Source of the DNA: Branchiostoma floridae | Lineage: Eukaryota; Chordata; Leptocardii; Amphioxiformes; Branchiostomatidae | Reading direction: 5' to 3' | DNA length: 64,000 bases | NCBI RefSeq assembly: GCF_000003815.2 | Contig: NC_049988.1 | Location: 9,136,545 to 9,200,544, forward strand | Shown: positions 45,801 to 48,800 of the stretch, one piece after another | Position numbering within the stretch: position 1 is the stretch's first letter | How the letters are laid out: every line of letters begins with the position of its first letter | Notes under the pieces: model-generated | Seen by the model: the letters and a program-made list of their open reading frames with translations, nothing else | What the model was told of the DNA's origin: nothing | Database searches by the model: none | Program-made: the position numbers and the translations under genes

Positions 45801-48800
45801 AATCATCCAACTGGAACAGGAGAGAATGATACATCATTAAAGGTGCAGCCATTATGATGTAACAGTACTCTAAATTTTATCATATACAGTTACACATATG
45901 CTGACTTGCTAAAAACAAAGTCTGTTACAGTTGTTTTACTTCTGGGGAAACAATTCATGTCAAATCCCAAGAGACTAGAAATTTGTTATGTTAATGCTTA
46001 AATTGTGAAAACTATCTAGAATTGCCAAAAAGCAATTACTCAAGCAACTGGATATGATTTTGGAATCATATCCAGTTGCTTGAGTAATTGCTTTTCAGCA
46101 TATCCTATTACCTGGATGTCTAACCTTCATCGACGTATCTAGAATTTGCTTGCGAATATTCTGCGTTTCTTTACTAATGAAATTATACATTTGTATTCTT
46201 TATTGTAATATTGAGTGTTTTGCCCCATTTGTAATAAAGCCATACAAGACTCACCCTGGTCATGTACTCCCTACACTTGGCCTTGGTATCCTCAGGTGTT
46301 TTCTTGTCAGCCAGCAGTTTCTCCATATGTGCTAAAAAAGGATGGCAGATGTTAGACATAAACATGTCAGAAGATACTGAAAACTTATCTGGAAAGGGTG
46401 AAGCTGACAAGGAACGTTTGCTATCTCTTAACTCTCATCTTCAAACCAGGACCTTATATCCAACGTTACAATTCCCCTGCCTTCTTCATTGTACAAACAA
46501 CATGCCTTTTGCAAGGAAAGTCCTTTAATATAAGCAATTTTGGGGTTATAATTCCCAGATTGACTATACAACTTGAAAACAGGAACTAAGAACAGTACAT
46601 GTCATCAGGAGAGGGGGATCTGTCATTGGATAATTTCTTATTTCTGACTTACCTTGCAGTAAGTGGTCAGCCCTAAAACACTCTCCAGTTTTGAGATCCT
46701 TGACCATGTGGTCAGCAAACTTGTCCACATGACCAGAGGCTCTGGGAAGATAGAACAATTTCAAAACTTGTCAGTTTTATGGGACGGTTATATCTTGAAA
46801 TTTTTACATTTACAAACTAAACATATTTCTTTTCATTTCTCATAAAGCTTGATGACAGTGAATTTCATTTTATTTCAAGAAATTATATCTTATTTAGGAA
46901 AAAATCCTTTAAATCCAATCTTTCCCTCAAATTTTATAGAATTTACAGAAAAAAAGTTTCTTCCTTACCATTGTATACATTATACCTAATAACTTAATAA
47001 GCTATCAATGATCAAGAAATGAAAAAGATAGCATTCAGAAAAATACCTATTGTGTACCATCACAAAATTGTTTCAGTTGTGAGTTTCATCAAGGAGGTTA
47101 ACCTCCTTGGTTTCATAATGATCAATGATCGAAAAGCCTATTTAGCTTTTAAAGAGAGAGAGCAACATCTGATATCTACTAACACAATAACAGAGAAGTC
47201 ACACATTTAAGAGTGTTCCAGCCTTACTTGAGAACATTTGCAGGAGTGAGCATGGTGCAGTCTATCTCCAACATACTCTCCTCCAAGATGAAGTGAGAGC
47301 GCCACATACCAGTGATGTTATTCTTCATCATGCAACCAATGGGACCAAAGTCAAACAGACCCGCCACACCTAGCACCCAAGAGGACAGGAAGAAGATAGT
47401 GTCACCAGAGTCTTTAAGGTATGATAAACAACTGAAAACACCAGTGCACATAGGAGATACATCTGTATTCTCCAAGCAGAGGTTGGGTCGGGGGGATTAG
47501 TAGTGGTCAGGATTTTTACTGTCTTGCTCCCCTCCCTGCCACTACTAATCCCCATTACCAAACATTTGCTTGGAAAATAATACATTTGTGCCGGCAAATA
47601 AAAATAAAGAGTTTTGCCACCACCTTTTCATGCTGAAAAATAAAGAAAAAAAGATGAGTGTGGAACCCCAGCTTTCTTCAGACATGGCCGTAGACACCTG
47701 ACTTACTTTAAGACATTGTAAGGAGTGAGCATGGTGGTCTCCACTTCCAGCATTCCGTCCTCGCGGACAAAGTGCGAGCGCCACATGGTCAGGATGTTGG
47801 TTTTCATCATACAGCCAATCGGCCCGAAGTCAAACAAGCCTGTCACTCCTAAATAGTGTATAGGTGTAAGTATGACCTGACGTTTATATTCACGGTTTAT
47901 ATCACGGTTAAAATTACTTTGATGCCATTCACTTGAACAGTATGATACTCAATGGAGATCCCATTTAGAAATTTTTCCACATGGAAGCTAAAATGAAGGC
48001 TAGACATCTGCGTAGTAAGATAACACTATTACTAATTAGCCACTGAAGAAGGATAGTGGATTCTATCCGAAACGTCTGACCGTTTCCAAAACCATATCCA
48101 GTTGCTTGAGTAACTACTTTTTGGTGTACATGTATCTTATTACCTGGATGTCTAACCTACATCGACGTAACACTATTAACAGTTCCATAAGCAACTGAAT
48201 AGACTTGTAACTGGACAGATATTTCACACAGCATCTGCTGTCCTTTGCCATTGACAAGCGGGTAGTTTGAAATGTCTGACTGTTTGGAATTCCAGTTCCT
48301 TGAGTGACTGTTATCTTGAATAACTAGTGCTATAGATTTATGATCCGGGTTGCTCCAAAAGTTTTAACATCTCCTGGAAGTTCACAAAAAATACAAACAG
48401 TTCCGTTTACCTCCATAGAGAGAAAAGGCCTGATCATAGACAAAACGCCTCTTCAACAGGTCCTCCATCTTAGCACGGTTGAAGGCTTCATCTGGAGGAG
48501 CCAGGGACTTCTCCTGGAGAGGGGAAAAAATAACTTGTAAGTGAAGAAGTAGGTTTCACTTGGGTAGTCCTTAAGAAGGAAGTGATTCAAGTTGATGGCA
48601 ATTTCTCTTTGAAAATGCAGACTACAGGTTCTGTATCCTAATAAGGCATATACATAAATATAAATAAAAGTATAAATCCAATGTTTGTTTGACAGCTTTT
48701 ATGAATAGGAATATATATTTCATAAATGACTTGCTGTCCCCGGACGGCAACTTTATGTCTTATGATGAATTCAGTACAAATTTCCCAAATGCTTGTGACC

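What the first reader, a model, noticed from the sequence alone, without database searches (positions are those of the whole stretch)
47228..47848. Two mutually exclusive copies of the motif-1 exon in glycyl-tRNA synthetase
Seen: two intact exons, 47848-47707 and 47369-47228, both 142 nt, same phases, good splice sites, about 74% identical at protein level, no stops. 142 is not a multiple of 3, so including both shifts the frame; either alone gives the full 682-residue frame. Known: in class II synthetases motif 1 builds the dimer interface. Inference: lancelets may make two GlyRS isoforms differing at that interface (for example KTN/KNN, LEVET/LEIDC, PYN/PAN). I know of no described isoform pair of this kind in GARS1.
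Basis: partly seen in the sequence, partly recalled or inferred. Interest (0 to 1): 0.93.

Follow-up and report, generated by a model that had tools for sequence, protein, structure and literature searches.

The report
Two swappable exons in lancelet GARS1
The lancelet gene for the enzyme that loads glycine onto tRNA carries two old, intact versions of one core exon of which only one fits per message, so the animal can probably make two forms of an essential enzyme; RNA evidence is still missing.

Summary
Observation confirmed. The lancelet GARS1 gene (minus strand) has two tandem copies of coding exon 4: A 47707-47848 and B 47228-47369, both 142 nt, same phases, GT-AG. Either alone gives 742 codons (682 from the second ATG); both or neither gives a stop at codon 202. 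They agree at 101/142 nt and 35/47 residues. Synonymous sites are near saturation (pS 0.71, pN 0.17), flanking introns show no homology, and a neutral copy A is rejected (0 of 823 matched simulations). So this is an old, selected tandem exon duplication, not an allelic artefact. It is the only GlyRS locus found. Most likely reading: mutually exclusive exons policed by frameshift and mRNA decay. The exon spans human G89-K136, including L129, where L129P disrupts the dimer. That the isoforms differ AT the interface is not shown: changed helix residues lie on one face, away from the most conserved one. No RNA or second lancelet genome was available. New member of a known kind, in a surprising gene.

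The parts
47707..47848 (-). coding exon 4A (upstream copy), 142 nt, [48 protein letters not shown]
   Evidence: GT-AG sites, open frame, 35/47 residues shared with 4B; glyS_dimeric profile 51.5 bits
47228..47369 (-). coding exon 4B (downstream copy, the more human-like one), 142 nt, [48 protein letters not shown]
   Evidence: GT-AG sites, open frame, matches human GlyRS chain residues 88-136; profile 52.6 bits
47370..47706 (-). A-B intron, 337 nt, ends gtaagt...ctag
   Evidence: folded
47466..47579 (-). MITE-like long hairpin inside the A-B intron, a dispersed genomic repeat, not a private selector element
   Evidence: 62 matches genome-wide, with 40 of 312 candidates scored; strong stem
48411..48513 (-). 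coding exon 3, constant upstream neighbour of 4A/4B
46653..46741 (-). coding exon 5, constant downstream neighbour of 4A/4B
50881..51120 (-). coding exon 1 with two in-frame ATGs (codon 1 and codon 61), presumably mitochondrial and cytosolic starts
   Evidence: sequence; alignment to human from codon 62; dual targeting inferred
39879..51120 (-). whole GARS1 coding region, 16 coding positions (exon 4 present twice)
   Evidence: 65% identical to human GlyRS over 682 columns; all 10 glyS_dimeric matches in the genome lie here

Best explanation
Lancelet GARS1 carries an old tandem duplication of coding exon 4, which encodes the motif-1 helix-strand segment of class II GlyRS (human G89-K136). The two copies work as alternative, effectively mutually exclusive exons. 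The spliceosome joins exon 3 to either 4A or 4B and then to exon 5. Because the exon is 142 nt, mRNAs with both or neither shift frame, stop at codon 202 and should be removed by nonsense-mediated decay, so only one-copy mRNAs yield enzyme. Both isoforms are probably active dimeric GlyRS. B is the conserved, human-like form; A is a more diverged, still constrained form that alters one face of the motif-1 helix and the following strand, tuning dimer stability, partner binding or activity in some tissue or stage. Shown here: anatomy, frame logic, age and constraint. Inferred: use in RNA, decay of the double and skip products, and the functional difference.
For: Equal length, phases and splice sites; each copy alone keeps the frame; both or neither gives a stop at codon 202. 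Near-saturated synonymous divergence with low pN (pS 0.71, pN 0.17; dN/dS about 0.09, bootstrap pN/pS 0.12-0.42; differences by codon position 12/6/23). A neutral A with B frozen or nearly so: 0 of 823 simulations matched on third-position divergence gave 12 or fewer residue changes, and 50-83% had a stop in A (mutation loads with fewer than 10 matched runs were left out). Best match between flanking introns is E 0.12, a 10-base word, so old and not allelic; published synonymous diversity from lancelet alleles is 0.070-0.075 (PMC4284660, passages). At eight sites A=B differ from human, and at seven of these the human residue is the commoner one in 77 prokaryotic rows, which places the duplication on the lancelet lineage or implies exchange between copies. 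Contrast: the same genome's ProRS gene has a dead exon duplicate, more similar (60/72 nt) but with an in-frame TAG. Frame incompatibility was found for 20 of 28 human genes with validated MXEs that were compared with Drosophila orthologues (PMC5740500, passages).
Against: No RNA reads and no second lancelet genome could be examined, so use and mutual exclusion are inferred. The A-B intron (337 nt) looks too long for steric exclusion and both donors look U2-type, so nothing found forbids A-B joining at the splicing step; in PMC5740500, 18 of the 20 frame-incompatible clusters did show joining reads (passage). Intron-intron pairing was no better than shuffles in any of 6 comparisons, and the one strong hairpin is a dispersed repeat. 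The acceptors are not clearly different: pyrimidine fraction 0.65 for A and 0.71 for B, within the gene's range of 0.47-0.94, and neither has an ideal branch motif (A: yUnAy at -60 and -19; B: at -56 only). The simulations also allow A to be under weaker constraint than B (acceptance 0.3 fits at lower divergence, 0.5 hardly).
Confidence: 0.82

Rival explanations
1. One copy is made for regulation rather than for protein: double inclusion (or skipping) is used as a switch to destroy GARS1 mRNA, with one copy acting mainly as a poison exon.
For: A+B and skip both stop at codon 202, early in the message; nothing found blocks A-B joining.
Against: A pure poison exon need not keep its own frame or residues. 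Both copies keep a full open frame, and amino-acid constraint on A is required to explain the pair.
Confidence: 0.08
2. One copy (probably A) is a decaying or unused duplicate that has simply not broken yet.
For: A matches human at 0 of the 12 differing sites, B at 6; A is further from human (27/47 against 33/47). Dead exon duplicates do exist in this genome (ProRS).
Against: 0 of 823 matched neutral simulations are compatible; exact length, no stop, intact splice sites after near-saturation at synonymous sites. A recent loss of use after long use is not excluded.
Confidence: 0.05
3. Assembly or haplotype artefact: two alleles of exon 4 placed in tandem.
For: Lancelets are very polymorphic (4.39% SNPs in B. 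belcheri, PMC4284660, passages).
Against: Synonymous divergence is about ten times or more the published allelic value; the flanking introns are unrelated; each copy was found once in the genome.
Confidence: 0.02
4. A special case of the best explanation: the two isoforms serve the two compartments, one exon being coupled to the mitochondrial start and the other to the cytosolic start.
For: Exon 1 has two in-frame ATGs and this is the only GlyRS locus found, so one gene must probably serve both compartments.
Against: No coupling between start choice in exon 1 and exon 4 choice was tested or is visible; human GARS1 serves both compartments (PMC8247414, passage), and I recall no second exon there.
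Confidence: 0.08

Closest known systems
Mutually exclusive tandem-duplicated exons (for example the human set in PMC5740500 and PMC9741552; FGFR2 IIIb/IIIc for decay of double products, seen as a reference in PMC6071210)
   Same: Adjacent homologous internal exons of equal length and phase; both-included product out of frame; old and constrained.
   Different: [quoted passage not shown] here the gene is a housekeeping tRNA synthetase and the exon is in its catalytic core. Use in RNA not yet shown.
Human LARS splice variant LSV3 (PMC8941210, abstract, opening and passages)
   Same: Regulated splicing changes the catalytic domain of an essential tRNA synthetase.
   Different: LSV3 skips an exon and loses catalysis; here one homologous exon replaces another and both products should keep the fold (inferred).
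CMT2D variants of human GARS1 such as L129P
   Same: L129 lies in the duplicated segment; L129P disrupts dimer formation (PMC8247414, passages).
   Different: A disease substitution at one site; here L129 is kept in both copies and 12 other sites differ.
Degenerate exon duplicate in the ProRS gene of the same genome (C1:5939455-5939535)
   Same: Tandem duplicate of a class II synthetase exon.
   Different: More similar (60/72 nt) yet carrying an in-frame TAG.

Membership tests
Mutually exclusive tandem-duplicated exons | Adjacent internal exons with homologous coding sequence | tested here: met
   35/47 residues, 101/142 nt
Mutually exclusive tandem-duplicated exons | Same length or frame, same phases, valid splice sites | tested here: met
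   142 nt each, same start phase, GT-AG
Mutually exclusive tandem-duplicated exons | Double inclusion incompatible with the frame (frequent, not universal) | tested here: met
   Stop at codon 202 for A+B and for skip
Mutually exclusive tandem-duplicated exons | Both exons used in mature RNA, never or rarely together | not testable with these tools
Mutually exclusive tandem-duplicated exons | Exclusion by short intron (one optional mechanism) | tested here: not met
   A-B intron is 337 nt; that this is long enough is recalled knowledge
Mutually exclusive tandem-duplicated exons | Exclusion by U2/U12 incompatibility (one optional mechanism) | tested here: not met
   Donors of A and B are gtaagt and gtaagg, ends GT-AG; U12 consensus recalled
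Mutually exclusive tandem-duplicated exons | Exclusion by competing RNA structures (one optional mechanism) | tested here: inconclusive
   6 of 6 intron pairings no better than shuffles (hairpin left out); hairpin is a dispersed repeat; no comparative genomes
Dimeric (alpha2) glycyl-tRNA synthetase, GARS1 | Homology along the whole enzyme | tested here: met
   codons 62-740 align to human chain 2-680; 65% identity; 10 glyS_dimeric matches at one locus, none over the whole-protein cut-off because exons score apart
Dimeric (alpha2) glycyl-tRNA synthetase, GARS1 | Exon 4 encodes class II motif 1 | tested here: inconclusive
Isoforms differing at the dimer interface | A/B differences are interface residues | tested here: inconclusive
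   Changed helix sites share one face (P 0.018-0.071 over four assumed ranges) away from the most conserved face; contacts could not be computed

The most novel reading that the evidence does not exclude
Lancelets make a regulated second GlyRS whose motif-1 segment changes dimer stability or exposes a new binding surface, so that the same gene yields a housekeeping enzyme (B) and a specialised or signalling enzyme (A). That would be a natural, splice-encoded counterpart of the conformational changes that CMT2D mutations cause by accident.
Probability: 0.25. Interest if true: 0.82.

Novelty: new member of a known kind. Interest (0 to 1): 0.58.

Why it matters
tRNA synthetases are textbook housekeeping enzymes, and motif 1 belongs to the core of class II members. 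An animal that has kept two versions of that segment in what appears to be its only GlyRS gene, through near-saturation at synonymous sites, suggests two jobs for the enzyme. It gives a natural substitution set at 12 positions around the GARS1 segment that holds a CMT2D site (L129), so the question of how motif-1 sequence sets dimer behaviour and extra functions becomes directly testable.

Tried and rejected
Assembly or allelic duplication: rejected on divergence and unrelated introns. Dead copy A: rejected by simulation. A selector or docking RNA structure: the only strong hairpin is a MITE-like repeat, and other intron pairings are no better than shuffles. Steric and U12 exclusion: not met. 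Other duplicated exons in GARS1: none below E 0.3 by tblastn of all 16 exons against 39000-52000. Pre-chordate duplication with human keeping B: less likely, since A and B share 8 residues against human, though exchange between copies could mimic this. Pfam scan of the two exon ORFs alone gave nothing (short). GFP by Pfam profile gave nothing; by protein it rang strongly. A viral-contig scan for outgroups matched 30 stretches, none a relative. From recall only, not used as evidence: yeast Grs1 seems to share V124 and Y132 with A.

Full report
What is there. On the minus strand the window holds a complete GARS1 coding region (51120 to 39879) in 16 coding positions. I rebuilt it from the sequence and printed every junction. 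A first pass had the end of exon 11 four bases off and the frame broke; with the donor 'gtttgt' after 42722 it runs through. The predicted protein has 742 residues, or 682 from the second in-frame ATG, and aligns with human GlyRS over nearly its whole length (codons 62-740 with chain 2-680; 65% identity over 682 columns). Exon 4 occurs twice: A (47707-47848) and B (47228-47369).

Observation check. Both copies are 142 nt and begin in phase 1. They share 101 of 142 nt and 35 of 47 complete residues. Using either one alone gives the full frame; using both or neither gives a stop at codon 202. A DNA search of the whole genome (513 Mb, 431 contigs) with copy B returns two places, B and A. The glyS_dimeric profile rings 10 times at E 0.01 or better, all at this locus, with the two exon copies scoring 52.6 and 51.5 bits. 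So one GlyRS gene was found, and the second copy is real.

Organism. The Pfam GFP profile had found nothing. The species is not established; I believe B. floridae.

Age and selection. Differences fall 12/6/23 over codon positions 1/2/3. pS is 0.71 and pN 0.17 (Jukes-Cantor dS about 2.2, near saturation, so imprecise; dN/dS about 0.09; bootstrap pN/pS 0.12-0.42). The best match between the introns flanking the copies is a 10-base word at E 0.12. Published synonymous diversity from lancelet alleles is 0.070-0.075, and B. belcheri and B. floridae split about 120 Myr ago (PMC4284660, passages only), so this is not allelic. Could A be unused? With both copies equally old, A neutral and B frozen or nearly so, none of 823 simulations matched on third-position divergence had 12 or fewer residue changes; 'both at 0.1' and 'A 0.15, B 0.05' fit at moderate mutation loads; 'A 0.3, B 0' fits only at lower loads; 'A 0.5' hardly fits (loads with fewer than 10 matched runs were not reported). 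A is therefore constrained, perhaps less than B. A recent end of its use is not excluded.

Polarity. Against human (numbering from the human chain) A and B differ at 91, 105, 108, 109, 116, 117, 119, 120, 124, 125, 126 and 132. B equals human at six of them (105, 116, 119, 124, 125, 126), A at none; at the other six all three differ. A and B agree against human at eight sites; in 77 prokaryotic rows the lancelet residue occurs 0 to 5 times at seven of these and 15 times at the eighth, and the human residue is the commoner of the two at seven, though at two sites (99, 110) it is itself rare (3 and 2 of 77). That places the duplication on the lancelet lineage, or else reflects exchange between copies. 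The 77 rows are those with few gaps among 80 fetched loci, the 80 kept of 592 relatives in a capped list. In them A's residue is the commoner one at 116, 117, 119 and 120, and B's at 91, 105, 124, 125, 126 and 132; at 108 and 109 neither occurs. Bacterial rows may be slightly misaligned around 117-124. In the 19 archaeal rows the mean match is 16.9 of 48 for A and 18.2 for B. Neither copy looks degenerate.

Where the changes lie. The exon spans human G89-K136, including P98, L129 and P131, all kept in both copies. L129P disrupts dimer formation and activity in human GlyRS (PMC8247414, passages). CMT2D mutations cluster round the dimer interface, though the same review argues that altered dimerisation is unlikely to be the cause (PMC5094542, passages). 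For the bacterial GlyRS alpha subunit, motif 1 (a helix and a strand) with three further helices makes most of the interface (PMC8464048, passages). That human 98-131 is motif 1 rests on the recalled class II pattern. The seven differences within the presumed helix (six in one of the four ranges) lie on one face (resultant 0.58-0.59; permutation P 0.018-0.071 over four assumed helix ranges). That face is 116-122 degrees from the most conserved one by the 77 rows and 83-100 degrees by the 19 archaeal rows. The 12 sites are more variable than the rest in the 77 rows (P 0.047) but not clearly in the archaeal rows (P 0.23). This is compatible with surface tuning as much as with interface tuning.

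How exclusion might work. The A-B intron is 337 nt, ample for splicing by recalled standards, and both donors are gtaag-type, so neither crowding nor spliceosome mismatch explains it. The intron folds much better than shuffles (z -4.6), but the stem is a dispersed MITE-like repeat, and outside it intron-intron pairing is not better than shuffles in 6 of 6 comparisons. What remains is the frame: double or no inclusion gives an early stop with many downstream junctions, a standard decay target. PMC6071210 lists decay among the known routes (passage). Among 28 human genes with validated exclusive exons compared with Drosophila orthologues, 20 had incompatible frames, and 18 of those clusters nevertheless showed joining reads (PMC5740500, passage). 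A has the better donor (AAA|gtaagt against CAA|gtaagg). The acceptors differ little (pyrimidine fraction 0.65 for A, 0.71 for B, gene range 0.47-0.94) and neither has an ideal branch motif (A: -60 and -19; B: -56). That trans-acting factors tip the choice is inference.

Control in the same genome. Profile scans for HisRS, LysRS, SerRS, ProRS and ThrRS show no second intact place for the same stretch at the same locus. These scans see only exons that score (4 to 10 matches each), and other class II families were not scanned, so they are a weak control. ProRS shows a partial exon copy, 60 of 72 nt identical, with an in-frame TAG: what a dead tandem exon looks like here. The GARS1 pair is more diverged yet unbroken.

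Literature. No paper in the held library has both 'glycyl-tRNA synthetase' and 'mutually exclusive exon'; the listings (20 of 33 shown; 20 of 307 shown) showed nothing of this kind in titles and abstract openings. Subscription papers and genome annotations were not searched, and a database gene model may already list both isoforms. [quoted passage not shown] Of hundreds of known synthetase splice variants in humans and mice, most disrupt the aminoacylation domain (PMC8941210, passage).

Verdict. A real, old, selected tandem exon pair in the only GlyRS gene found, most likely a mutually exclusive pair. The kind is known; the place is surprising. The missing proof is RNA.

Noticed in passing
window 48668-49528 (+): LINE-like fragment antisense inside GARS1 intron 2: open frame of 286 aa with a zf-RVT match (E 1e-8).
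   Followed up: partly
window 47466-47579: MITE-like hairpin in the A-B intron; 62 matches genome-wide with 40 of 312 candidates scored, strong stem.
   Followed up: partly
L094 (G000:C1:5939455-5939535 and 5939608-5939784): ProRS gene with a degenerate tandem exon copy carrying an in-frame TAG, 60/72 nt like the live exon.
   Followed up: partly
window about 48160-48090 and 46130-46060: GARS1 introns 3 and 6 share a repeat ('gttagacatccaggtaata...ttactcaagcaactggatatg'), read by eye.
   Followed up: no
window 42716-42721: Coding exon 11 of GARS1 needs a weak donor 'gtttgt' to keep the frame.
   Followed up: no
genome contigs C4, C17, C14, C3: Large GFP family: 68 exon-sized matches to one GFP, while the Pfam GFP profile found none.
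   Followed up: no
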